The notes beneath the pieces were generated by a model, which did not search any database, was not told the origin of the DNA, and was given only the letters and a program-made list of their open reading frames with translations. This document shows positions 4,295 to 17,343 of a stretch of DNA of 32,165 bases, in pieces. Source of the DNA: JBDRGX01 sp043817485 [NCBI: bacterium] (GTDB lineage Bacteria > JBDRGX01); NCBI GenBank assembly GCA_043817485.1, contig JBDRGX010000058.1, positions 1 through 32,165 on the forward strand. Direction: 5' to 3'. Numbering within the stretch: the first letter of the stretch is position 1; each line of letters starts with the position of its first letter. A program made the translations under genes and the position numbers.

Positions 4295-5419
4295 TTAGCG
4301 AACCCAAAAAAAATCATATAAATTTTCAATTTCTTTTACCATTTTTTCACAAGTAAAATATTTTTCTACTTTTATTCTTCCTTGTTTTCCCATTTCTATT
4401 CTTTTTTCTTTATTATCCAAAAGTTCTTTTATTGCTTTAGCTAAAGCAAAAGAATCTTTGACTGGTACTAATAACCCAGTATTTTCATCTACTAATTCCT
4501 GATTTCCACTAATTTTACTCGCGATAACAGGAATAGAAGATGCCATTGCTTCTAAAATACTTACAGAAAGACCTTCTCTCAATGAAGGTAAAACAAAAAT
4601 ATCTGTTATTTTCAATATCTCTGGAATATTTTTCTTTACTCCAGTAAAAATAACATTTTTACTTATTTCTAATTTATAAGTAATTTTTTTTAATTCATTT
4701 AATAAAAAACCTTCTCCAACAATTAAAAGAATTGTATTTGGATATGATTCTAATATTAATTTCATTGCTTCAAAAAGAAAAATATGTCCTTTTTCTAAAA
4801 CTAACCGAGCAACATAAGTAATTATATATGGCTCATTTATAATTTTCAATTCTTTATACATCTTTTTTTTATCAACAATAATATTAAACTCTTGTAAATT
4901 AATTCCATTATAAATAACAATAATTTTATTTGGATTTATTTTCGCTTTTTCAATCATAAAATCTTTTATTTTTTGACAAACTACGATTATTTTATTTACA
5001 AAAAAAGAACTTATTTTTTCTAAATAAAGTTTATATTTTTTTTCTGATTGCAAAGTATGAATTGATGAAATAACTGGAATTCCTACTAATTTTCCAGATA
5101 TTCTACTGAAAATATTTGCTCTAAAAAGATGGCTATGAATAATATTTATTTTTTCTTTTAAACAAATAAAAACTAATTTTATAATAATTCTAAAACTATC
5201 TAAAACTGCCCAAAAATTTTCTTTATCAAAAGTATTTAAACTAATTACTTTAATTCCTTGTTTTTCTAATTCTAAAGCAATTTCTCCCTTTTTTTTAAGA
5301 GAACAAACGACTATTTGATATTTTTTTTTATCAAGTCCTTGAATAATTTGAAAAAAAATTTTTTCTGCACCACCAATTCCAGTGCTTGTAATAACCATTA
5401 AAATATTAATTTTTTTCAT
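4295..5419 (-). CDS. GT4-family glycosyltransferase
   Basis: Retaining GT-B fold glycosyltransferase (GT4/WaaG-like), expected to add a sugar to a lipid-linked glycan at the inner face of the cytoplasmic membrane. The N-terminal acceptor domain begins with a Rossmann strand and the loop STGIGGAEKIFFQI. The C-terminal donor domain has the EX7E signature in PSLREGLSVSILEAMA (about residues 278-293), with both glutamates present. Length (374 aa) is typical. Composition matches the AT-rich native genes and contrasts with the next gene upstream (5515-6798), so it probably belongs to the resident locus. The ribosome site is weak (GAG about 15 nt upstream). Sugar specificity cannot be read. Confidence 0.88.
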   Translation of the reverse strand: MKKINILMVITSTGIGGAEKIFFQIIQGLDKKKYQIVVCSLKKKGEIALELEKQGIKVISLNTFDKENFWAVLDSFRIIIKLVFICLKEKINIIHSHLFRANIFSRISGKLVGIPVISSIHTLQSEKKYKLYLEKISSFFVNKIIVVCQKIKDFMIEKAKINPNKIIVIYNGINLQEFNIIVDKKKMYKELKIINEPYIITYVARLVLEKGHIFLFEAMKLILESYPNTILLIVGEGFLLNELKKITYKLEISKNVIFTGVKKNIPEILKITDIFVLPSLREGLSVSILEAMASSIPVIASKISGNQELVDENTGLLVPVKDSFALAKAIKELLDNKEKRIEMGKQGRIKVEKYFTCEKMVKEIENLYDFFWVR

Positions 5420-5514: not shown

Positions 5515-6798
5515 TTACTCATCTTTAATGTCATCAGAAACGAAATGCAAGTGTTCATAATTAAATACTAACTTTTCAAGCACTGCAAATGGCCCCAATT
5601 TTTCTTCTGCAAATTTCTTAGAACAAACAGATATTGTTTTTCTAAACAAAGAATCGCTTAACGCAACCATGCAATTACAAATCTCCTCCGGAGTTTCGGC
5701 ATTCATGATAGGCGACTCACCCAAAAAACTCAAATTCCTTGCATTGGCAATAAGAGGTTTCCCTATATAGAGTGCATACATGCCAGCACCTATCCAATGT
5801 TTCCCTACTTGATCGAAACATATGTCAGCCAATTCATAAAGATTGATTAGCTCATTGAAAGGCATCTCTTTATGCCACACAACAACATCAGACAATCCAA
5901 TCTCATCACAAAGAAGCTTTGCATAGTGAACATCTTCCCCTTTTTCAACAAAATGAATCTCAATATTTTTATTAAGTTTTTTATACATAGCCAACCCATG
6001 AATTATTTTATCATTTCCCTTGGAATATTCCTCATTTGCCTCAGGAAAAGTTTTATACAAAAATCTAACTCCCGAAAAAATCACTAACTTTTTTCCCTCA
6101 AGTTTAAACTCGCGATTAACATGCTTAAGTTGCTCAAAAGAAGCATCGTATCGCGGTATATAAGTTACCCCTGAATCTTCAATCTCAGAAATTAATCGAT
6201 CTCCAACTTTATTTAGTCCTTTTGGAAAGTACAATAAAATATTAGCATTTTTTGCCGACTTAAAGTTTTGACTCACTATTAATTTAATTATTTTTCTTGT
6301 AATAATATATGGAAAAAATTTAAAAACTGATCGCTGTTTCATCCCCCAAGAAAGTAACGATATGTTTTGAGTATTGCACCAAACATCAAAATCTGAACCA
6401 TGTGAAAGAAATATTTTTAAAGTCTCTTTCTTTAAAAATGGTACAAATGATATAAACGATCCTCCTAAAAAAACTGCTTTTATAGTATCAAATTTTTTTT
6501 TACGATTAGCTTTTTGCAACATTAATAGCAAAATTAATTTTGGAAATGCATTAACAATAAATTGAGTTGGAAGAATAAACTCAATCACCCAGTCTGGATA
6601 AGGGTAAGAAATATTTGGAAAATGATTTTCTGGACGACATAACGCATTCTTTTTAAAAACATCAACGAAATAAATAACATCTTGACCTAATTTCCTCAAC
6701 TCATGTGCATACATCATTGGCATCGCATTCATTGTGCCAAAAAAAATAACCACACCTGATGCATTTATATCTATCATACTATCCCACTTCTTTTCCAT
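5515..6798 (-). CDS. glycosyltransferase (GT-B type), transferred cassette
   Basis: Predicted GT-B glycosyltransferase of 427 aa. It has an N-terminal Rossmann start (SGVVIFFGTMNAMPMMYAHELRKLG) and a C-terminal donor-type domain in which ELADICFDQ, GAGMYALYIGKPLIA and AETPEEI follow the order seen in GT4/GT1 proteins. The classical EX7E is not evident, so the family is less certain than for the neighbouring GT4. The start at 6798 has AGAGGT 7 nt upstream and overlaps the flippase stop by 20 nt, so the two are coupled. Codon use is intermediate between the native genes and the G+C-richer flippase. It presumably builds the repeat unit exported by that flippase. Confidence 0.7.
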   Translation of the reverse strand: MEKKWDSMIDINASGVVIFFGTMNAMPMMYAHELRKLGQDVIYFVDVFKKNALCRPENHFPNISYPYPDWVIEFILPTQFIVNAFPKLILLLMLQKANRKKKFDTIKAVFLGGSFISFVPFLKKETLKIFLSHGSDFDVWCNTQNISLLSWGMKQRSVFKFFPYIITRKIIKLIVSQNFKSAKNANILLYFPKGLNKVGDRLISEIEDSGVTYIPRYDASFEQLKHVNREFKLEGKKLVIFSGVRFLYKTFPEANEEYSKGNDKIIHGLAMYKKLNKNIEIHFVEKGEDVHYAKLLCDEIGLSDVVVWHKEMPFNELINLYELADICFDQVGKHWIGAGMYALYIGKPLIANARNLSFLGESPIMNAETPEEICNCMVALSDSLFRKTISVCSKKFAEEKLGPFAVLEKLVFNYEHLHFVSDDIKDE

Positions 6799-8299
6799 TC
6801 AAATTACCTCTAATCAGCATACAAAAACTCTTTCGAACAAAAGTTGATGTTATAGATCCAGACATCATAACTATTAATCCAAAACCAATCACAATACCTA
6901 TCTGCCACCAGCGGTTATCATTATGTGGTAAAATTAAATTTAATCCATAGCCGACTATCGCAACAACTAAAAAAATTATCAGAATATCTTGAACATACCA
7001 TTTCAAATTTAACCCTGGTGCAAATTTACGATGTACAAGAGGTAACCACGCAACAAAGGAAATTACATTCATTATCAACCAAACATAACCTGCACCTACA
7101 CCACCATATTGACTGGCAGCCCATATGATGACAGGTATCAGCAGTACTACAAAAACAATATTACCTATCAAATGCAATCGCAAGTCACCTTTAGCATATT
7201 GCAGATAATACGGAAAAGCCGAGACCGCCAAAATGCCATTGCCAATCGCGTAAAGCACTAAAATAGAGGCTGCTTGATGTGCCAAAATTTTGTTGCCTGT
7301 CCATGCCCACAGCAACGGCTCAGCACAAAATACCATTGTGATAGAAACAGCACCTGCAATTACTGCAACTAATTGTGTTGCCTGCCGATAAACACGAATT
7401 ACGCCTGTATAGTCACCTTCTGCTTCTAATTTTGCCATGTGTGGCATAATGGCACCGCTAACAGGTCCACTAATCACCATTACACCACTGGCAACTAATA
7501 CTGCCAAAGTAAAATAGCCATAGTCTGCTAATGACAATAGCTTAGAAAGTACTAATTTGTCAGTCTGCGTAATTAGCACCCAAACTGATGAAGTAAAAGC
7601 TATACTGAGTGAAAACTTGAACACAGGTTTAAGTGGTGTCCAAGACCAGGATAACCGCTTGCCTTGAGGAATGATTGGCAATAGTCGATAAGCATAAAAA
7701 AGCAACCCTACCAGTTCCAACACAGCCACACCAAACTGGTATCTAAAAAAAATCGCTGGTGTTGCACCAATGAATATCAAAACTGGTAATATGCTAACAA
7801 AGCGTAATGTGGCAATAAATGAGTTGTATTTCCCTAACCACACCAACCGCTCCGATCCACTAATTATACCACGATACAGTCCGCACATCCATCGCATGGC
7901 AATAATTATCGCCATAAATTGCACTGCTGTTTGTACTTCGACAATTGGTAGTTGTGTTGTCTGCAACCAGTCAACAGAAATATAACCTGCGGCTGCAAAC
8001 ATAACTATACCACCAACCAATGCCACCACAAAAAATATGCCCTCCAGTGCTCGCACTAAACGACGATAACTGAGTGCATCCGTTGTACCACCCCGAAATC
8101 GTGCCGTTTCCCGTGCCATAGTAGGCGTTAATCCCATGTCCAGCAGATTGAACCATACTTGCAACATGGCAAAAAATCCTACCAACCCATACGCCTCCGC
8201 CCCCATATATTTGATATACAAAGGCAATATTACAATGCCAATAATCGTAACATATATTTGACTAATATAGTTGGCGAGAATGTTGCGTTTGAGGGACAT
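6779..8299 (-). CDS. Wzx-like O-antigen flippase (MOP/MATE superfamily)
   Basis: Integral membrane protein of 506 aa with about 12-14 hydrophobic segments, belonging to the polysaccharide transporter (PST/Wzx) family. It moves undecaprenyl-linked repeat units across the inner membrane. Diagnostic features are the N-terminal YISQIYVTIIGIVILPLYI helix, the motif GLVGFFAMLQVW, and LLDMGLTPTMARETAR, all typical of proteobacterial Wzx. GGAG lies 7 nt before the ATG at 8299. Codon choice is clearly richer in G/C than the flanking resident genes; one sample line (7321-7380) has 23 G/C in 60, against 14 in 60 at 15001-15060. This indicates acquisition from another lineage. A 192-nt gap with a small inverted repeat separates it from the methyltransferase gene. 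Confidence 0.9.
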   Translation of the reverse strand: MSLKRNILANYISQIYVTIIGIVILPLYIKYMGAEAYGLVGFFAMLQVWFNLLDMGLTPTMARETARFRGGTTDALSYRRLVRALEGIFFVVALVGGIVMFAAAGYISVDWLQTTQLPIVEVQTAVQFMAIIIAMRWMCGLYRGIISGSERLVWLGKYNSFIATLRFVSILPVLIFIGATPAIFFRYQFGVAVLELVGLLFYAYRLLPIIPQGKRLSWSWTPLKPVFKFSLSIAFTSSVWVLITQTDKLVLSKLLSLADYGYFTLAVLVASGVMVISGPVSGAIMPHMAKLEAEGDYTGVIRVYRQATQLVAVIAGAVSITMVFCAEPLLWAWTGNKILAHQAASILVLYAIGNGILAVSAFPYYLQYAKGDLRLHLIGNIVFVVLLIPVIIWAASQYGGVGAGYVWLIMNVISFVAWLPLVHRKFAPGLNLKWYVQDILIIFLVVAIVGYGLNLILPHNDNRWWQIGIVIGFGLIVMMSGSITSTFVRKSFCMLIRGNLNGKEVG

Positions 8300-8315
8300 T
8301 AGCCTACTCCATGCA

Positions 8316-8340
8316 CAACAGATATTATATTAATCTGTTG
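8316..8340. repeat. 8-bp inverted repeat upstream of the flippase gene
   Basis: CAACAGAT and ATCTGTTG form a perfect 8-bp stem around a 9-nt A/T loop, 17 nt before the flippase start. There is no following T run on either strand, so it is unlikely to be a simple terminator. It could be a regulatory hairpin or operator in the leader. The rest of the 8300-8491 gap shows nothing recognisable. Confidence 0.35.
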
Positions 8341-8491
8341 CAAAAAAATATATTTGGTAAATTCCATAGTAAAAACTTCTCTCATTTATTTTTCTTCTTT
8401 ATTGTGTGATTGAACTTCAAAACTACAAAATTCATTTTCTAAATCTTACGACCTTGCAACACGGCTTAACGGAATATTCTATTGCGCCTAA

Positions 8492-9217
8492 TCACTTCCG
8501 AGTACATATAAAATAAATGCTAGCTGTCAATTCTGGATACTGCATACCAAGAGCATAACAACCATCAAGATAACCTTCGTCAATTACCTTATTCTTCAAG
8601 AGTAGATCAAACTGAAAATTAGCAAATGGCTTGAAAAACACCCCACCCCTTGATTCAATATTTAATTTTGCTTGGCGAATCTCATGTTCAAGAGTATCCA
8701 TGCTGTATGTACAACAATGACCGTGTACAAGCTCACCCGCAGTAACAGAATTATTGGTTTCTATCAAACCCATTTTTACGGCGATCTGTCGCGATGCAGC
8801 ATTCGCATTGGGAACAACTACAAAAAGTCGACCAGTTGGACTTAACCAATTACCTATGCACAAAAGTGCCTCAATTGGATTATCCAAATGCTCTAATGTA
8901 TGTACTAAAAAAATCGAATCATAAATAGGCTCAAGTTTGGCTGTTTCAATTGTAGAATGAATAAAGCGAACATTTGCCGGTACTTTTTTTTTTGCCACCT
9001 CAATTAAACTATCAGCAGCTTCAAGCACCGTTAAGTCGTCAAAATGCTCAACGTATAATTTGGTTGTTTCGCCTTCAAAACAGCCCAGTTCCAATGCCTT
9101 ACCGTTTGTAAAGAACGGTAAGAATGTGCGCATCATATAACGACGAATTACATAGTCAAAATCATAGGCATATTGCCTATCTTTATTGTCTTGGTACTCA
9201 TTGTTATAGTCTCTCAT
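8492..9217 (-). CDS. class I SAM-dependent methyltransferase
   Basis: Methyltransferase of 241 aa with a standard Rossmann SAM site: motif I ALELGCFEGETT (about residues 41-52), an acidic loop after strand 2 (LTVLEAAD), and HTLEHLDNPIEAL, the Methyltransf_11/23 post-motif. The C-terminal part is unfamiliar and probably binds the acceptor. It is the last gene of the coupled set starting at the aminotransferase, and its ATG overlaps the acetyltransferase stop by 4 nt. Context suggests O- or N-methylation of a sugar or of the glycan end. The substrate is not deducible. Confidence 0.82.
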   Translation of the reverse strand: MRDYNNEYQDNKDRQYAYDFDYVIRRYMMRTFLPFFTNGKALELGCFEGETTKLYVEHFDDLTVLEAADSLIEVAKKKVPANVRFIHSTIETAKLEPIYDSIFLVHTLEHLDNPIEALLCIGNWLSPTGRLFVVVPNANAASRQIAVKMGLIETNNSVTAGELVHGHCCTYSMDTLEHEIRQAKLNIESRGGVFFKPFANFQFDLLLKNKVIDEGYLDGCYALGMQYPELTASIYFICTRK

Positions 9218-9690
9218 TGATATTCTCCTTTACCTTGTTCTGAAAAATTTAATTGCATTAACACCATATTGCCTTGGTTTTCAATTTTTTTAAACCCAAA
9301 CTTTTTGTATAGGCACATTGCAGAATAATTATTTATCAATACTTCCATCGTAATATTTTTAATATCGCATTGTTTAGCATATTTAAGACAGTTATTCATT
9401 AAAGTAGTTGCAATTCCCTTTCCCATGAAATCCAAATTTACACTCACATTGGTAATGTAGCCAGTACAGCCACTTGAATCATTAAAATATGCAGCTACAA
9501 GGCCAATGAGTTTTTTGTCATGCCATGCTTCAAAAGTTATAGCCTTGTCAAATATTTTTTTCGAATATTTATCAATATTAACCCGTTGAATTAGTGGCGG
9601 ACTAAAATTGTTATTGCAACAATATAAGTGTGAACATATTTCTTCTTCAGAAACTGTTTTTATTTTGTAACTTACGACTGCAATACTCAT
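9214..9690 (-). CDS. GNAT-family N-acetyltransferase
   Basis: Acyl-CoA-dependent acetyltransferase of 158 aa. The acetyl-CoA-binding motif A is visible as VSVNLDFMGKGIATTLMN, with the G-K-G-I-A pyrophosphate loop. The typical C-terminal strand and helix follow as YSAMCLYKKFGFKKI. It overlaps both neighbours by 4 nt (ATGA), so it is part of the cassette operon. Downstream of a sugar aminotransferase its plausible job is N-acylation of the amino sugar, in place of the LbH acetyltransferase (VioB type) usually found. This role is inferred from position only. Confidence 0.8.
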   Translation of the reverse strand: MSIAVVSYKIKTVSEEEICSHLYCCNNNFSPPLIQRVNIDKYSKKIFDKAITFEAWHDKKLIGLVAAYFNDSSGCTGYITNVSVNLDFMGKGIATTLMNNCLKYAKQCDIKNITMEVLINNYSAMCLYKKFGFKKIENQGNMVLMQLNFSEQGKGEYQ

Positions 9691-10643
9691 TCCAACACCG
9701 CAATGCCAAAACCATATTTCCCGAACTCATTGCCATTATATAGCAAATATATTTTACTGTCACATTCAAAAACATGAGGGTAACATTGCATATCGGAATC
9801 CCATTCGCCTTCCGAGACATCAATTCCCACATTTTTATCGTCTCTAATCCAAGTTTTTAAGTCATCTGAAAATGCATAGCCAATCCTGTAACCCCTACTT
9901 TTGTTCTCCCTGAAATCGAAAGATTGTCTATAGCAAAAAAACATATGGTATTTACTATCAAACTTGATAACAGTAGGCAACGCCTGACTTTCATCAATGT
10001 TCAATTTATTAGTAATTATCTGTTTGCCATCTTCTTTTTCCCAGACAATACCATCTTTTGATGTGGCATGACCAATTTTATAAACACGATCTGGGGCATC
10101 TTCCTTTGAAAATTTTTTCCAATGAATGCCAAAGATGTACCACATATGAAAGGTATTTTCAAAAATATTTACAAACGGATCACCAACTAAACATGGCTCA
10201 TGCAATGAAGATGTGAGAATGGGTCCATCTCCAATCTTTTGAAAAGTAATGCCATCATCCTGACTTATTGCAAAACCAATTGAGGTATCTACTGCTACGG
10301 AAACTCTTCTGTTCCAACCACAGGTATAGCCATATATTTTATCTCTGCATCTAAAAACATTCATCGGGAATATCCCATGCTCGTCAAAACAGCCTAACTT
10401 ACCTAACTCGATGACTATATTTTTAGATACCTTAATTATCTCTTTAAAATTTTTCGTCATGTCAACAAAAGAAATATGACTCAAATACTTATCGTTCTTT
10501 ACATCTTTTTCCCTGGTAGAGAAATATATCCTTACGAAATTATCAAAAACCAGTGCTTGAGGAGATTGAGCATACTGGAAACAATTATTCGATAAATTAA
10601 ATTCCGTAGGATCAAATATTTTTCCAATTTTTAGCCATTTCAT
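9687..10643 (-). CDS. five-bladed beta-propeller protein (GH43/GH130-like), copy 2
   Basis: Predicted beta-propeller of 318 aa resembling the glycosidase clan GH32/43/62/68/117/130. Blade-like repeats recur as IGFAISQDDGITF, IGHATSKDGIVWEK and RIGYAFSDDLKTWIRDD, each with the Y/F-A-x-S-x-D-x-x-x-W pattern. Candidate acidic residues sit in IDESQALPTVI and VSEGEWDSDMQCYPHVF. It is a paralog of the next gene upstream (10665-11627), sharing layout and many motifs. Such proteins occur inside O-antigen clusters without known activity. There is no signal peptide, so it acts in the cytoplasm. Either a sugar hydrolase/phosphorylase-like enzyme or a binding protein is possible. Confidence 0.65.
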   Translation of the reverse strand: MKWLKIGKIFDPTEFNLSNNCFQYAQSPQALVFDNFVRIYFSTREKDVKNDKYLSHISFVDMTKNFKEIIKVSKNIVIELGKLGCFDEHGIFPMNVFRCRDKIYGYTCGWNRRVSVAVDTSIGFAISQDDGITFQKIGDGPILTSSLHEPCLVGDPFVNIFENTFHMWYIFGIHWKKFSKEDAPDRVYKIGHATSKDGIVWEKEDGKQIITNKLNIDESQALPTVIKFDSKYHMFFCYRQSFDFRENKSRGYRIGYAFSDDLKTWIRDDKNVGIDVSEGEWDSDMQCYPHVFECDSKIYLLYNGNEFGKYGFGIAVLE

Positions 10644-10664
10644 AAAAACTCACCACCCTACTAT

Positions 10665-11627
10665 TTAGATTAGCTTTCCATCTAATTGAGCCAAACCGAA
10701 ACCATGTCGCCCAACTTGGTTTCCGAGATAAAGCATGTAAATACTCTTGTCGCATTCAAAAACATGAGGATAGCTGATCATCTCAGAATCCCATCCTTCA
10801 TCAGAAACATCAATACCTGCTTTTAAATCATCTCTAATCCAGTTAATTAAATCAATAGAGAATGCATAGCCAATTCTATATCCGTTCTTTTTTCCCCTAT
10901 AATTCTGACTATATCTATAGCAAAAAAACATGTGATATTTTCCATTGCAAAAAAAAACATCTGGGCTGGCTTGAGCTTCATCTTCTTCTAATTTATTTTC
11001 AATAAGATCCTTATTGATTTTTGTCCAGTTTATACCATTAGTCGAAGTCGCCATACGGATCTTATAAACTGGCTCCGCTCTTTCATCTACAACTTTCCAC
11101 TTTCTACCCGCGATATACCATAGATACCACAGATTATTGTATTTTCTAATCTTCGGGCCACTTAGAACAAAAGGTTCATCAATGGTATATGACAAAATAG
11201 GACCATTGCCGAGCTTGGTGAATGTCTTGCCCTCATCTTGACTTGTTGCAAAGCCGATTGCGACATTGAATGGAACAGACTCGCACCGTGTCCAACCAGC
11301 ATAATATGCAAAAACATCATTGCCATTTTTTATTACAGATACTGGGTAGGTTCCAAATTCATCGAACTCTCCTAAATTACCTAATTTCAATATCGAATTT
11401 TTACTTACATTAAGTATTTCAAATAAATTAAGTCTATTCAAATCAACATAACCAGAGTAACTTACATATTGTGCATTTTCGTCGGGTAAAGGCCGACAAG
11501 AAAAATAGACTCTAACAAATTTATCAAAAATTAAAACTGAAGGTGCTTGTGCGAATTCTTTCATCCAGCTTATAGTTTTAACTTCAATAGGGTTAAAAAC
11601 CCTTCCAAGTTTTTTCCATGTAAACAT
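10665..11627 (-). CDS. five-bladed beta-propeller protein (GH43/GH130-like), copy 1
   Basis: 320-aa paralog of the protein at 9687-10643, from which it is separated by 21 nt. The same blade motifs occur: IGFATSQDEGKTFTKLG, RMATSTNGINWTKI and RIGYAFSIDLINWIRDD. Acidic positions are preserved in EDEAQASPDVFF and VSDEGWDSEMISYPHVFECD. The shared end (GRHGFGLAQLDG versus GKYGFGIAVLE) shows that both are full length. AAGGGTG precedes the ATG. A tandem duplication kept intact within a coupled operon suggests two related substrates or a heterodimer. No signal peptide is present. Function is unassigned; the clan is inferred from blade pattern. Confidence 0.65.
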   Translation of the reverse strand: MFTWKKLGRVFNPIEVKTISWMKEFAQAPSVLIFDKFVRVYFSCRPLPDENAQYVSYSGYVDLNRLNLFEILNVSKNSILKLGNLGEFDEFGTYPVSVIKNGNDVFAYYAGWTRCESVPFNVAIGFATSQDEGKTFTKLGNGPILSYTIDEPFVLSGPKIRKYNNLWYLWYIAGRKWKVVDERAEPVYKIRMATSTNGINWTKINKDLIENKLEEDEAQASPDVFFCNGKYHMFFCYRYSQNYRGKKNGYRIGYAFSIDLINWIRDDLKAGIDVSDEGWDSEMISYPHVFECDKSIYMLYLGNQVGRHGFGLAQLDGKLI

Positions 11628-11647
11628 TTTTCACCCTTCTTACATAT

Positions 11648-12343
11648 TTATATCAATTCGTAATTATCCAACAATTTGCCCATTTCTATGGGATCATTAA
11701 ACATCATTACATCAATAATAGAAAGCCAAGGAACAAACGCATTATTAAATTGTTGGTATTCAATAGGCATTGATTTAATAAATTTCAAGTCAAGCCCATG
11801 TTCTCTAAAAATATCATTTGAATAAAGCCTTTGTCCTCCAATTGCATTTATATAAGTACTCGCGTCAAAATATTGACATATATCTATTACCTTGTCTTGA
11901 GACTTTATTGAATGATCTATACCAATATTTGAACATATAACAATTTCAGTTTCAATTTTTAACTCTTTGCATATTTCTTTAATTGAAAAATATATATACT
12001 TAAACAAGTTGGTTTCATTATTTAACAACACTTTTTCAAAAAGATAAAATATTTGTTTAAAATACGGAGCTTTTTTATAAGCCTCTTTCATTTTGTTAAG
12101 CAATTTAATTTTATTAAAATCAACAGATATTATTCTATCTTTCACATCTAAATAATCTGAATCTTTCTTTATCGAAATAAAAAAATTAGTAGCTTTTCTA
12201 TTTTGTAGAAACCTATTTCTGTTGATCCATCCCTTTTTAGTGTACTTGATATTGTCATAAACTACAAATTTGTCAACAGATTTTATTAACTGAAAATATC
12301 CAATATATGGGAAAAAATATGGTTGCATTATGCCAATTTTCAT
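11648..12343 (-). CDS. WbqC-like family protein
   Basis: 231-aa member of the WbqC-like family, identified by the opening IGIMQPYFFPYIGYFQLI and the following VYDNIKYTKKGWINRNR. Members are common in O-antigen and glycosylation clusters near sugar aminotransferases. They have been proposed to act in amino-sugar acylation or glycine-type amide formation, but no general activity is established to my knowledge. The ATG overlaps the aminotransferase stop by 4 nt, and the propeller gene follows after 20 nt. Codon use is more AT-rich than in the aminotransferase. Family call is firm; role is unknown. Confidence 0.82.
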   Translation of the reverse strand: MKIGIMQPYFFPYIGYFQLIKSVDKFVVYDNIKYTKKGWINRNRFLQNRKATNFFISIKKDSDYLDVKDRIISVDFNKIKLLNKMKEAYKKAPYFKQIFYLFEKVLLNNETNLFKYIYFSIKEICKELKIETEIVICSNIGIDHSIKSQDKVIDICQYFDASTYINAIGGQRLYSNDIFREHGLDLKFIKSMPIEYQQFNNAFVPWLSIIDVMMFNDPIEMGKLLDNYELI

Positions 12344-13449
12344 AATATCTTATCTTTAATAATTGATATTATTTTCATAACTGCTTCATTTTCTAAAGCG
12401 GAGTAAATTGGCAAACAAAGCACGGTATCTGCCACTTTTCTCGCCACTGGTAAATTAGACTGCAATGCAGAAGGCAACCCTCTATACATCGGAAATTCAC
12501 TTATCAATGGATAAAAATAGCGTCGAGCATAAATCCCATGTTGCCGAAGTTTTTCATAAAGTTCATCTCGTAATAATGGATATTCTTTTTCAATCAATAT
12601 TGGAAAATACGAATAATTGTGTGTTGCCTCGACAGGTAATGGTGGACAGAAAATACCAGGAACAGATAAAAGTTGTTTCCGGTATTGTACATTTATCTCT
12701 CGGCGACTATCAATTGCTTTATCAATATACTTGAGTTGCAACAGGCCAAATGCTGCTTGTACTTCATTCATTTTTCCATTGATTCCAGTCGCTACTACGG
12801 TAACTTCACCGGAATAGCCAAAATTTTTCAGGTCATCAATGTGTTTTTTCGTTTTAGCGTCAGAACAAACTATAGCACCACCCTCAAAGGTATTGAATAC
12901 TTTTGTTGCATGGAAACTCAATATTGACAGATCTCCATGCTTCAACAAGCTCTCACCCTTATAGTTGATTCCAAACGCATGTGCCGCATCATAAATGACT
13001 TTCAAACCATATGTATCAGCAATCTTTTGTATTTTTTCTACATCACACGGGTTTCCATATATATGTACCGGCAAAATTGCAGTAGTATGCGGTGTGATTG
13101 CCGCTTCGATCTTTTCCGGATCAAGATTGAATGTTTCGGGATGAATATCAACAAAAACAGGTTTTATGCCATTCCACAAAAGAGAATGTGCGGTTGCAAC
13201 AAAAGAAAACGGAGTAGTAATAACCTCACCGGTAATTCGTAATGACTGAAGTGCTATAACAAGAGCAAGAGTGCCATTAGCAAACAAAGCAAGATGCTTA
13301 ACTCCCAAATACTCAGCCAGTTTTTTTTCCAATTCCTGATGAAATGGTCCGTCATTGGTAAGCCATTTGTTCTCCCAGATTTGTTCCAGATACGACACAA
13401 ATTCTTCTAGTGGAGGAAGAAATGGTTGTGTTACATAGATGTTTTTCAT
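12340..13449 (-). CDS. DegT/DnrJ/EryC1-type sugar aminotransferase, VioA-like
   Basis: PLP-dependent aminotransferase that converts a nucleotide-linked ketosugar to an amino sugar. The sequence around KNIYVTQPFLPPLEEF and LFANGTLALVIALQ resembles E. coli O7 VioA, which makes dTDP-4-amino-4,6-dideoxyglucose; the exact sugar is inferred. The PLP-binding lysine is in SFHATK, the aspartate pairing with the pyridine nitrogen is in IYDAAHAFG, and HIYGNPCDVEKI is conserved. The start at 13449 is chosen over the ATG at 13497 because AAAGGAAG (13457-13464) lies 7 nt upstream and homologs begin at this Met. The first gene of the transferred cassette operon, it has its own promoter. The dTDP-glucose pathway genes (rmlA, rmlB) are not in the window. 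Confidence 0.88.
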   Translation of the reverse strand: MKNIYVTQPFLPPLEEFVSYLEQIWENKWLTNDGPFHQELEKKLAEYLGVKHLALFANGTLALVIALQSLRITGEVITTPFSFVATAHSLLWNGIKPVFVDIHPETFNLDPEKIEAAITPHTTAILPVHIYGNPCDVEKIQKIADTYGLKVIYDAAHAFGINYKGESLLKHGDLSILSFHATKVFNTFEGGAIVCSDAKTKKHIDDLKNFGYSGEVTVVATGINGKMNEVQAAFGLLQLKYIDKAIDSRREINVQYRKQLLSVPGIFCPPLPVEATHNYSYFPILIEKEYPLLRDELYEKLRQHGIYARRYFYPLISEFPMYRGLPSALQSNLPVARKVADTVLCLPIYSALENEAVMKIISIIKDKIL

Positions 13450-13521
13450 GCTACTACTTCCTTTGTTTTCTTTTTTATTTTTCATTGAAACAACCATTAA
13501 TTTTCTCTAATGGTTAATATT

Positions 13522-15548: not shown

Positions 15549-16631
15549 TTATAATTTTTTATTTATAACATTTTTAAATTGTTTATTATATAAAGAAGCA
15601 TAAAATTCATTCTTTTCTAAAAGTTCTTTATGAGTTCCTTTTTCAACAAACTTTCCTTTATTCATTACTATAATTATATCTGCTTCTATAATAGTCGATA
15701 AACGATGTGCAATAATAAATGTAGTTCTATCTTTCATTAATTTTTGAATAGCATTTTGAATCAAAGACTCACTTTCTGCATCTAAAGCAGAAGTTATTTC
15801 ATCAAAAATTAAAATTTTAGGATTTTTAAGAAATGTTCTTGCAATAGAAATTCTTTGTTTTTGTCCCATTGATAATGTTTTTCCATGCTCTCCAATAATA
15901 GAATTAAACCCTTGTTCAAAATTCATAATAAAATCATAAGCATTAGCTTGTTTTGACGCTTCTTTTATTTCTTCAAAAGAAGCATCAAAATTACCTAATC
16001 TAATATTTTCTTCAATTGTTCCAGAAAAAAGAATGCTTTGTTGCATTACTACACCGATATTTTGTCGTAAAAAAGACAATTTTATTTTTTTTATATCAAC
16101 ATCATCAATTAATATTTGTCCTTCATCTGGATCATAAAATCTTGAAATTAAATCCATTAAAGTACTTTTGCCAGATCCACTGTAACCAACTAAAGCAATT
16201 GTTTTTCCTGCTGAACCTATAAAAGAAATGTTTTCTAAAACTTTTTTTAAAGAATTTTTAGAATAATTAAAAGATACATTTTTAAATTCTACTTTTCCTT
16301 TTATTGGCAAATTTACAGTTTTTTCAATATCAATTTCTGAACTAATATCTAAATATTCAAAAACTCTTTCTGTAGATGCTAAACTTGTGGCAATTTCAAT
16401 AGACATTTCTGAAAGAGTAGCAATAGGACTATAAATAAGAGGCAAATATAATAAAAAAGTTACTAAACTTCCAATAGAAATTTGATTATTAAAAACTAAA
16501 TAAATACCTACCCAAAGAACAATTATTTTTCCTAAATGTTGTAAAATTTCATGCAAAGATTGAAAAATAGAACCAATTTTTGCTTTTTTTAAAAAATTAT
16601 CATAATATTTTTTTAAAAAATTTAAAAAAAT
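15549..16631 (-). CDS. MsbA-like ABC exporter, C-terminal part after an in-frame stop
   Basis: C-terminal part of a lipid A/glycolipid-type ABC exporter: the rest of the transmembrane domain (LHEILQHLGKIIVLW, GSLVTFLLYLPLI) and the complete nucleotide-binding domain. Walker A is GYSGSGKST, the signature is LSMGQ (for LSGGQ), Walker B is ILIFDEITSALD, and the switch histidine is in IIAHRLST. It is in the same frame as the N-terminal part, separated only by the TAA at 16632-16634. The residues between (IFLNFLKKYYDNFLKKAKIG) align gap-free with the usual exporter helix. TTG at 16556 could start a separate product, but it would lack most of the membrane domain. The original reading was very likely one protein of 584 aa. 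Confidence 0.8.
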   Translation of the reverse strand: MFLNFLKKYYDNFLKKAKIGSIFQSLHEILQHLGKIIVLWVGIYLVFNNQISIGSLVTFLLYLPLIYSPIATLSEMSIEIATSLASTERVFEYLDISSEIDIEKTVNLPIKGKVEFKNVSFNYSKNSLKKVLENISFIGSAGKTIALVGYSGSGKSTLMDLISRFYDPDEGQILIDDVDIKKIKLSFLRQNIGVVMQQSILFSGTIEENIRLGNFDASFEEIKEASKQANAYDFIMNFEQGFNSIIGEHGKTLSMGQKQRISIARTFLKNPKILIFDEITSALDAESESLIQNAIQKLMKDRTTFIIAHRLSTIIEADIIIVMNKGKFVEKGTHKELLEKNEFYASLYNKQFKNVINKKL

Positions 16632-17303
16632 TTAACTTTGTTTTTTTTCTAAAACAAAAGATTTAATTACTTTTATTCCACCTATTTTTTCTGTTGCTTC
16701 ACCAGAAATATCAGATATTTTTTTTTGTAAATTTTTACTCTGTTTTTTTATAATAGGCAAGCATATTTTTAAAAGAATTGCATAAATTACACAAGTTAAA
16801 AAAGTAATAAAAGTTAGTTTTTTGCTTGTAATCCATCCAAAAATTAAAAAAGGAATAAAATTAACTATGTTAAGTACAATAGATGGAATAGCATTTCCTA
16901 CAAGAGTTTCTATTTGTTCAATATCATTAATAAGTCTTGAAATAATTTCACCAATTCTTTTTTTATCATAAAAAGAATTGCTTAATTTTAAAAGATGATT
17001 ATAAAAATGAGATCTTATTTCCATTTTTACCTTATTAGCTAATAAACGAGGTAAAAATGTTCGTAAAAAATAAACAATCGTAAGCAACAAAAACAAAATA
17101 ATAAGAAACAAGAAAAAAGAATTTAATTCTTTTAAAGAATATTTATTTTCTTTAATACCATCAATAATTTTTCCCAAAAAAAAAGGAATAATATATCCTG
17201 TAACAGATTTAATAATAGCAAAAAAAGTAGCTGCTATTAATATCCATTTATGTGGTTTTAAAAACATGAACAATTTTTTTAAGGTGTGTGTTTTTTGCTC
17301 CAT
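16632..17303 (-). CDS. MsbA-like ABC exporter, N-terminal part ending at an in-frame TAA
   Basis: N-terminal half of the exporter transmembrane domain, with about four to five hydrophobic helices and the conserved LSNSFYDKKRIGEIISRLINDIEQIE segment of type IV ABC exporters. It ends abruptly in the middle of the intracellular helix after VIKSFVLEKKQS. MsbA itself is about 580 aa, so this product is less than half a protein. I prefer ATG 17303 to the TTG at 17315. The gene follows the GldA-like ATPase gene by about 40 nt and precedes the O-antigen ligase, so all probably form one operon. Expected role: flipping a lipid-linked glycan or lipid A across the inner membrane. Confidence 0.78.
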   Translation of the reverse strand: MEQKTHTLKKLFMFLKPHKWILIAATFFAIIKSVTGYIIPFFLGKIIDGIKENKYSLKELNSFFLFLIILFLLLTIVYFLRTFLPRLLANKVKMEIRSHFYNHLLKLSNSFYDKKRIGEIISRLINDIEQIETLVGNAIPSIVLNIVNFIPFLIFGWITSKKLTFITFLTCVIYAILLKICLPIIKKQSKNLQKKISDISGEATEKIGGIKVIKSFVLEKKQS

Positions 17304-17343
17304 ATTATCTTTCAAAATTAAATTTATTTTATATTTGTACCAC

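What the first reader, a model, noticed from the sequence alone, without database searches (positions are those of the whole stretch)
9687..11627. Tandem paralogous propeller proteins within an O-antigen operon
Two five-bladed propeller proteins of the GH43/GH130 type lie back to back between a WbqC-like gene and a GNAT gene. They have no signal peptides, so they act in the cytoplasm, where a secreted-type glycan hydrolase would be unexpected. With VioA-like, WbqC-like, GNAT and methyltransferase genes they could form an undescribed pathway that makes and attaches an unusual acylated, methylated amino sugar.
Basis: inference. Interest (0 to 1): 0.6.

Follow-up and report, generated by a model that had tools for sequence, protein, structure and literature searches.

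The report
Propeller proteins in amino-sugar decorating cassette
Two related sugar-enzyme-shaped proteins belong to a six-gene kit, found in many unrelated bacteria and (in single-propeller form) on virus contigs, that most likely builds an unusual sugar carrying an amino acid and a methyl group for cell-surface and flagellum glycans; what the two proteins themselves do is still open.

Summary
PropA (10665-11627) and PropB (9687-10643), minus strand, are real paralogues (48% identical) without a signal-like N-terminus. AlphaFold gives PropA as a propeller (pLDDT 97) closest to GH130/GH43-type enzymes (Z about 29).

The gene order recurs. In the 80 best bacterial relatives PropA-PropB are adjacent in 78, WbqC lies nearby in 75, and DegT-WbqC-PropA-PropB-GNAT-MT occurs in that order in 42. 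Viral contigs carry a single-propeller form. In 299 evenly drawn genomes, 18 of 21 with a strong propeller also have WbqC (79 of 299 overall).

What the cassette makes is inferred. DegT is 64% identical to E. coli O7 VioA. The two E. coli serogroups seen with WbqC (O121, O123) make viosamine bearing an amino acid; six VioA regions read lack WbqC, and one of these (O116) is cited for plain N-acetyl. WbqC's predicted fold best matches BshC, which joins cysteine to an amino sugar, without sequence support. In a few loci ATP-grasp or PF13480 genes stand where WbqC is missing, and a PurN-like gene where GNAT is missing.

I read it as a pathway to N-acyl-aminoacyl, methylated viosamine. The propellers' own reaction is unresolved; GH membership is not established.

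The parts
12340..13497 (-). DegT/VioA-like 4-aminotransferase, first cassette gene
   Evidence: PF01041 366 bits; 64% identical to E. coli O7 VioA, 61% to the O123 enzyme, 56% to the O121 enzyme; of 43 NCBIfam matches the 25 shown are all under their cut-offs, best DesI 315.7 against 650
11648..12343 (-). WbqC-family protein; inferred amino acid:amino-sugar ligase
   Evidence: PF08889 224 bits; predicted fold pLDDT 96.2; best structural match BshC, Z 13.8, 3.4 A, 224 residues; profile comparison with BshC negative
10665..11627 (-). PropA, five-bladed propeller
   Evidence: AlphaFold2 pLDDT 97.2; Z 29.0 to GH130 9fj8, 29.3 to 5mt2
9687..10643 (-). PropB, paralogous propeller
   Evidence: 48% identical to PropA; separate clade from PropA in the tree; own structure not predicted
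9214..9690 (-). GNAT acyltransferase, inferred to acylate the amino acid
   Evidence: PF00583 59 bits; 27% identical over 108 residues, E 4e-13, to the GNAT of the E. coli O121 cluster
8492..9217 (-). class I SAM methyltransferase, last cassette gene
   Evidence: PF13489 65 bits; 5 of 80 bacterial loci have the order WbqC-PropA-PropB-MT with an MT ORF over 380 residues, read as a GNAT-MT fusion
6779..8299 (-). Wzx-type flippase (context)
   Evidence: PF01943 46 bits
5515..6798 (-). weak GT4-like glycosyltransferase (context)
   Evidence: PF00534 22.1 bits, under the cut-off of 26.4
4295..5419 (-). GT4 glycosyltransferase (context)
   Evidence: PF00534 141.6 bits
13671..15257 (-). O-antigen ligase/polymerase-like protein with TPR (context)
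   Evidence: PF04932 38.2 bits and TPR models

Best explanation
PropA and PropB are core parts of a mobile cytoplasmic cassette that makes a nucleotide-linked viosamine (dTDP-4-amino-4,6-dideoxyglucose) whose 4-amino group carries an N-acylated amino acid and which, or whose side chain, is methylated. Steps: DegT/VioA sets the amine (inferred from 64% identity); WbqC joins an amino acid to it (inferred from three lines); GNAT acylates that amino acid (inferred); MT methylates (inferred); a glycosyltransferase and flippase, or a GT41-type flagellin transferase, use the product (inferred from context). The propellers most likely bind the nucleotide-linked aminoacyl sugar in their funnel, where I place the conserved Arg45, Arg238, Asp280, Asn303, Trp112 and Trp177 by strand ends and not by measured geometry, and carry out a tailoring step that the propeller-free E. 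coli clusters lack. PropA is probably the essential part, because viral cassettes of the closer type keep only a PropA-like copy; PropB is an old diverged partner. That propeller step is a commitment, not a result (about 0.3); the confidence below is for the cassette-level statement.
For: Recurrence: in the 80 best bacterial loci PropA-PropB are adjacent in 78, WbqC-PropA-PropB-GNAT-MT follow in order in 51, in 42 with DegT directly before (order among these families only, other ORFs may lie between); WbqC nearby 75/80, MT 73/80, GNAT type 69/80, DegT 65/80. Less biased sample: 18 of 21 genomes with a strong propeller also have WbqC against 79 of 299 overall, Fisher p 5.4e-9. Rhizobium and Tateyamaria plasmids show the same order in their annotation. 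Chemistry: E. coli O121 has rfbB-rfbA-DegT-WbqC-GNAT and its glycan is cited for N-acetylglycyl Qui4N (PMC3210612 passages); O123/O186 has DegT-WbqC-unknown-GNAT-MaoC and O123 bears N-[(S)-3-hydroxybutanoyl]-D-alanyl Qui4N (PMC10609480 passages). Six E. coli VioA regions have no WbqC; O116 is cited for N-acetyl Qui4N. Fold: WbqC matches BshC, Z 13.8 over 224 of 231 residues, next row 8.7. Swaps: ATP-grasp in the WbqC slot in L032, L033; a PF13480 protein beside the propeller in 3 of 4 sampled genomes without adjacent WbqC; PurN-like formyltransferase and no GNAT found in L078, L085. A 3-hydroxyacyl-CoA dehydrogenase gene in 3 of the 5 bacterial loci with an O123-type GNAT (L051, L052, L074).
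Against: No cluster with a propeller has a known glycan structure in anything I found, so the product is extrapolated from propeller-free E. coli clusters. The E. coli correlation rests on two WbqC serogroups, and for five of the six VioA regions without WbqC the glycan was not looked up. The WbqC-BshC link is structural only: Foldseek's own E-value is 0.053 with probability 0.57, and profile-profile comparison is no better than unrelated controls (0.3% against 0.1-2.6%). The window GNAT is not close to the O123 GNAT (E 0.015). The PurN-like proteins (130 and 137 bits) are under the PurN cut-off of 150. MT-type genes were found in only 45 of 71 viral loci. Viral cassettes mostly hold a 210-residue mini-DegT of unknown activity. 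WbqC is not tied to propellers: 61 of the 79 WbqC genomes lack a strong one. The 80 bacterial loci are the best hits, biased to close relatives, and L073 and L083 show neither WbqC nor a stand-in that I could name.
Confidence: 0.65

Rival explanations
1. The propellers are glycosyl-transferring enzymes: GH130-like proteins that run in the synthetic direction, moving the modified viosamine from a nucleotide or 1-phosphate donor to an acceptor.
For: Closest folds include GH130 phosphorylases and a mannoside synthase (9erg Z 26.6); two strongly conserved arginines (Arg45, Arg238; 86-100% by group) could bind phosphate; GH130 enzymes work reversibly (recalled).
Against: In the compact Buttiauxella island a GT41-type transferase already sits beside flagellin; Rhizobium cassettes have a glycosyltransferase gene after MT; the GH130 EDPR motif is not kept in the one available alignment register, which is uncertain.
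Confidence: 0.13
2. The propellers are non-catalytic: they bind the nucleotide sugar or scaffold the intermediates between WbqC, GNAT and MT.
For: I could not place a canonical GH catalytic residue in PropA (my reading; PropB has one fully conserved Asp at a blade start, Asp155); genes are tightly coupled; partners swap while propellers stay.
Against: Polar residues kept across diverged groups, Asp280 and Arg238 among them, suggest more than a scaffold; two old paralogues are kept side by side in 78 of 80 loci.
Confidence: 0.25
3. Ordinary cytoplasmic glycosidase or phosphorylase that recycles or edits wrong glycans.
For: GH32N score above cut-off in PropA; fold.
Against: It keeps biosynthetic company: WbqC nearby in 75 of 80 bacterial and 65 of 71 viral loci; both window copies are below the GH130 cut-off. 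I did not annotate every neighbour, so a breakdown setting elsewhere is not excluded.
Confidence: 0.1
4. The cassette makes something other than an aminoacyl viosamine, for example a 3-amino sugar or a direct N-acyl sugar, and WbqC does another job.
For: A FdtA/QdtA cupin precedes the cassette in Tateyamaria; the amino sugar may vary between hosts; I found no direct proof of WbqC chemistry (one paper search by name).
Against: 64% identity to VioA and the E. coli O121/O123 correlation.
Confidence: 0.25

Closest known systems
GH130 (1,2-beta-oligomannan phosphorylase 9fj8, beta-1,2-mannobiose phosphorylase 7fip), with GH43, GH117, GH32, GH159
   Same: Propeller fold, Z about 25-29 over 256-291 residues in the 50 listed entries
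   Different: 7-17% identity in those rows; window copies are below the Pfam GH130 cut-off; catalytic motif not placed; sits in a biosynthetic gene set
E. coli O121 and O123/O186 O-antigen clusters (VioA-like DegT, WbqC, GNAT)
   Same: Same first two genes in the same order and a GNAT further on; published aminoacyl viosamine in the glycan
   Different: No propeller and no separate methyltransferase gene in the regions read
Pseudomonas syringae viosamine island (vioA, vioB, vioM, vioR, vioS, vioT)
   Same: VioA, acyltransferase and a 241-residue methyltransferase making a modified viosamine for flagellin; the vioM mutant has demethylated viosamine (PMC3927599 passages)
   Different: Its seven listed genes include no WbqC or propeller; it uses acyl-carrier-type genes. 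Sequence identity of its methyltransferase to the window's was not tested
BshC, bacillithiol synthase
   Same: Predicted WbqC fold, Z 13.8; joins an amino acid to a sugar amine (recalled); a PIG-L-like gene beside WbqC in other genomes, as BshB in bacillithiol synthesis (recalled)
   Different: No sequence-profile relation; the BshC proteins fetched are 525-547 residues against 231
PurD/PurN steps of purine synthesis
   Same: ATP-grasp ligation of glycine to a sugar amine followed by formylation (recalled), mirrored by the ATP-grasp and PurN-like swaps
   Different: Analogy only; different substrate, and the swaps were seen in different loci, not together

Membership tests
GH130 | five-bladed propeller fold | tested here: met
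   PropA model: Z 29.0, 2.7 A, 278 residues to 9fj8
GH130 | Pfam PF04041 score over the curated cut-off of 26 bits | tested here: not met
   23.1 (PropB) and 25.6 bits (PropA); 66 of 81 relatives match at E 0.01 or better
GH130 | catalytic Asp of the EDPR motif (motif recalled) | tested here: inconclusive
   aligned to a stretch without Asp in the HMMER register, which is blade-shifted
GH130 | phosphorolysis or hydrolysis of mannosides | not testable with these tools
   needs enzyme assay
GH32 | Pfam PF00251 over cut-off, full length | tested here: inconclusive
   PropA 27.7 against 22.1 bits, best stretch residues 225-303 only; PropB not listed
GH43 | Pfam PF04616 over the cut-off of 32.2 | tested here: not met
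   PropA 18.1 bits; PropB not listed at E 1
WbqC | Pfam PF08889 over cut-off | tested here: met
   224.1 bits against 21.3, positions 1-213 of 218
VioA | close identity to annotated VioA | tested here: met
   64% over 367 residues to E. coli O7 VioA
VioA | transamination of dTDP-4-keto-6-deoxyglucose | not testable with these tools
   needs enzyme assay; best NCBIfam model is DesI, 315.7 against cut-off 650
BshC | shared fold | tested here: met
   WbqC model: Z 13.8, 3.4 A, 224 residues to 4wbd; Foldseek probability 0.57
BshC | sequence-profile relation | tested here: not met
   hhalign probability 0.3%, like unrelated controls at 0.1-2.6%; PF10079 absent from the Pfam scan at E 1

The most novel reading that the evidence does not exclude
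The propellers catalyse a reaction new for this fold on a nucleotide-linked aminoacyl sugar, such as closing or transferring the N-acyl-aminoacyl side chain, with PropA and PropB as successive or paired steps; and WbqC founds a BshC-like family of amino acid:amino-sugar ligases used from bacteria to phages.
Probability: 0.22. Interest if true: 0.85.

Novelty: new variant of a known kind. Interest (0 to 1): 0.62.

Why it matters
WbqC occurs in 79 of 299 sampled genomes, yet the one paper search for its name gave no functional account that I recognised in its listing (12 papers, most of them unrelated). A concrete reaction for it, and a defined companion set, turn a family of unknown job into something one assay can settle. 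The propellers would be carbohydrate-enzyme folds used in building, not breaking, glycans. The cassette crosses phyla, plasmids and viral contigs and lies in both O-antigen-type and flagellin-type settings, so it would help to predict surface structures from genomes.

Tried and rejected
Prop in E. coli: I first took the 'hypothetical protein' of the O123 cluster for a propeller; comparison shows it is not, nor a mini-DegT by BLASTP, and it has no Pfam or NCBIfam match. Blastn with the window's and with Buttiauxella's propeller DNA finds no propeller in 5426 E. coli genomes, at DNA-level sensitivity only.

A catalytic mechanism read from GH residues: no GH signature could be placed safely; I had no coordinates to measure the pocket, so the funnel residues come from conservation and strand ends, not from geometry.

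A strict propeller-methyltransferase link: suggestive (both absent from the E. coli O121/O123 regions), but MT-type genes were found in only 45 of 71 viral loci (two seed proteins, E 1e-5), so it is not claimed as a rule.

Chemistry idea set aside: cyclised N-acetoacetyl amino acids would give the known oxoprolyl substituents; this is paper chemistry only.

Phage records with names: tblastn at E 1e-5 found none in 50,697 with a window or a distant viral propeller. The 50 rows listed for PropA against predicted viral structures hold only loosely similar propellers. Of the flanking genes tested, those of L002 match phage structural families, the two of L001 match none, so the viral nature of the other contigs rests on IMG/VR. 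GINT1_N proteins (37 of 299 genomes) were considered as kin; the one long example scanned has no other Pfam domain in its N-terminal half, so a formyltransferase fusion that I recalled was not confirmed.

WbqC without a propeller: 20 loci were fetched and up to seven genes around WbqC read in each; no propeller showed there, and many are a different module with a PIG-L-like gene.

Literature for the propellers: searches gave no paper on them in the listings; the library holds open-licence PMC papers only.
Full report
What is there. They lie in a tightly spaced run DegT (12340-13497), WbqC (11648-12343), PropA, PropB, GNAT (9214-9690), MT (8492-9217), followed by a Wzx-type flippase and two glycosyltransferase-like genes; an O-antigen ligase-like gene lies before it. 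DegT/WbqC, PropB/GNAT and GNAT/MT overlap by four bases. The genes from 5515 to 13497 have 25-41% G+C, while most genes measured around them have 20-26% (chaperonin and type II secretion genes 29-31%), which fits import into an AT-rich genome.

Fold. An alignment of 81 relatives gave an AlphaFold model of PropA with mean pLDDT 97.2 and pTM 0.94. The 50 listed best PDB entries are glycoside hydrolases, phosphorylases or a synthase, from families known as five-bladed propellers (recalled): 5mt2 Z 29.3, GH130 oligomannan phosphorylase 9fj8 Z 29.0, GH159 7zei Z 27.8, then GH43, GH117 and GH32 members (Foldseek). PropB was not modelled. By sequence neither window copy reaches the GH130 or GH43 cut-off; PropA passes GH32N on a short stretch. 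Membership in a GH family is therefore not claimed. Neither protein, nor any of the 81, has a signal-like N-terminus by hydropathy.

Conservation. A tree of the 81 puts PropA and PropB in two separate well-supported clades; the 11 viral copies of the closer type fall in or beside the PropA clade, and 21 distant viral copies fall outside both (midpoint rooted, many inner nodes weak). Counting bacterial PropA (22), closer viral (11), PropB (27) and distant (21) apart, residues kept at 80% or more in each group include Arg45, Trp112, Trp177, Arg238, Trp279, Asp280, Tyr286 and Asn303; Asp89 is complete except in the distant group (71%). PropA and PropB differ sharply at several blade starts, for example Gly157/Lys159 against Asp155/Phe157. 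So both look functional and different.

Recurrence. In these 80: PropA-PropB adjacent in 78; WbqC-PropA-PropB-GNAT-MT in order in 51, with DegT directly in front in 42; another 5 have a long MT ORF read as fused GNAT-MT (only these families were ordered, other ORFs may lie between). Within 4 kb upstream to 3.5 kb downstream on the same strand, WbqC is found in 75, MT in 73, a GNAT type in 69 and DegT in 65; some misses are contig ends or fusions. The record titles span Pseudomonadota, Bacteroidota, Nitrospirae, Chloroflexi and Kerfeldbacteria among others; many are metagenome bins whose assignment may err. Rhizobium leguminosarum, Rhizobium sp. CIAT894 and Tateyamaria plasmids carry the same order. 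As a less biased test, 299 genomes of the phylum of one bearer were searched: 34 have any match and 21 a strong one (over 190 bits, a line I drew after seeing the list; the 13 weaker were dropped); 18 of the 21 have WbqC, against 79 of 299 overall, Fisher p 5.4e-9, and in 17 of the 18 both lie within about 4 kb by their coordinates. The reverse does not hold: 61 of the 79 WbqC genomes have no strong propeller.

Viral contigs. IMG/VR gave 72 loci; 71 have a propeller ORF, one each in the stretch held. WbqC is present in 65 of 71, DegT or a roughly 210-residue mini-DegT in 62, MT-type genes in 45; 30 have WbqC-PropA-(GNAT)-MT, and 24 of 71 have a long MT ORF that fits a GNAT-MT fusion, one of which was confirmed by Pfam (L101). 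Several contigs are near-copies. Beside the cassette of L002 lie a structural and a tail-fibre protein; the two flanking proteins of L001 match no phage family. Named phages gave no match.

What it probably makes. DegT is 64% identical to annotated VioA of E. coli O7. In E. coli, clusters with WbqC could be tied to structures. O121: rfbB, rfbA, DegT, WbqC, GNAT, this WbqC found in 13 of 5426 genomes; a review cites N-acetylglycyl Qui4N with the O121 structure paper (PMC3210612, passages) and a table gives N-acetyl-glycyl Qui4N for S. dysenteriae D7 (PMC10609480, passages). O123/O186: DegT, WbqC, an unknown protein, GNAT, MaoC, this WbqC found in 10 of 5426, with N-[(S)-3-hydroxybutanoyl]-D-alanyl Qui4N for O123 (PMC10609480, passages). 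Six other regions with annotated VioA have no WbqC: O116, one with an O116-family flippase, O7, O39, O49 and one untyped. O116 is cited for N-acetyl Qui4N; the structures of the other five were not looked up. Two further DegT regions, a plasmid one with an ATP-grasp gene among them, also lack WbqC. In O121 two genes beyond DegT, WbqC and GNAT, face two added groups, glycyl and acetyl; the simplest reading gives glycyl to WbqC and acetyl to GNAT.

Independent support for WbqC. Its model (64 sequences, pLDDT 96.2) has as best PDB match BshC, Z 13.8, 3.4 A, 224 of 231 residues; the next row is Z 8.7 and further rows include pantoate-beta-alanine ligase and aminoacyl-tRNA synthetases. BshC joins cysteine to an amino sugar (recalled). 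Against this, Foldseek gives only E 0.053, and hhalign between WbqC and 12 BshC proteins gives 0.3% probability, against 0.1-2.6% for five unrelated controls. In other genomes WbqC stands beside a PIG-L-like gene; two were confirmed by Pfam.

Swapped parts. In L032 and L033 the WbqC slot holds an ATP-grasp protein. Of the four sampled genomes with a strong propeller but no adjacent WbqC, three have a PF13480 protein next to it; in the fourth (L253) I saw none. In L078 and L085 a PurN-like formyltransferase (under the PurN cut-off) stands in and no GNAT was found. Of the five bacterial loci with an O123-type GNAT (L051, L052, L070, L074, L080), three (L051, L052, which give identical scores, and L074) have a 3-hydroxyacyl-CoA dehydrogenase gene inside the cassette; the viral GNAT of this type in L002 is 47% identical to the O123 GNAT. 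These swaps fit 'join an amino acid, then acylate it'. L073 and L083 have neither WbqC nor a stand-in that I could name; in L070 WbqC lies on the other strand.

Where the product goes. Twelve of 80 loci hold a flagellin gene and 18 of 80 a protein similar to the Buttiauxella GT41-type transferase, which also has methyltransferase and TPR parts that can draw hits. In Buttiauxella sp. B2 the cassette lies between fliD-fliC-GT41 and a sigma-70 gene that I read as fliA, the place where flagellin glycosylation islands of Enterobacteriaceae lie (PMC4875605, passages; its two Buttiauxella strains had none). In the window the neighbours point to a Wzx-type polysaccharide.

What remains open. No propeller-bearing cluster has a known glycan in what I could search, so the propellers' reaction is not deduced. 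My commitment is tailoring of the nucleotide-linked aminoacyl sugar (about 0.3), ahead of a binding role (0.25), glycosyl transfer (0.13) and plain hydrolysis (0.1).

Noticed in passing
window 15549-17315: An ABC exporter appears in two pieces: a membrane part (16632-17315) and a piece with the end of the membrane part plus the ATPase (15549-16556), as if broken between them.
   Followed up: no
L001:3056-3691, L090-L161: Viral cassettes mostly carry a mini-DegT of about 210 residues; the one scanned matches only positions 25-99 of 360 of the DegT profile, yet such a gene is found in 57 of 71 propeller-bearing viral loci.
   Followed up: partly
L260-L272: A recurrent WbqC - PIG-L-like deacetylase - short DegT module in other genomes; PIG-L confirmed by Pfam in L260 and L272 only.
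   Followed up: partly
L162:8452-9426: Unknown 324-residue protein between WbqC and GNAT in E. coli O123/O186 with no Pfam or NCBIfam match; a candidate for supplying or attaching D-alanine.
   Followed up: no
L003:2615-4922 (same contig as L132): Viral cassette with E1 dehydrogenase-like and transketolase-like genes and an ATP-grasp-like gene between WbqC and the propeller (for the first two; the third by similarity to L055).
   Followed up: no
L055:8349-9988, L081:8310-9942: Extra ATP-grasp and metallophosphoesterase genes between WbqC and PropA (the L081 pair read by similarity only).
   Followed up: no
L172:7957-12355: E. coli plasmid with DegT, GNAT, PALP-type PLP enzyme, ATP-grasp and glycosyltransferase genes, perhaps an alternative aminoacyl-sugar set without WbqC.
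   Followed up: no
window 5515-13497: Foreign-looking G+C content (25-41% by gene) against mostly 20-26% around it.
   Followed up: partly
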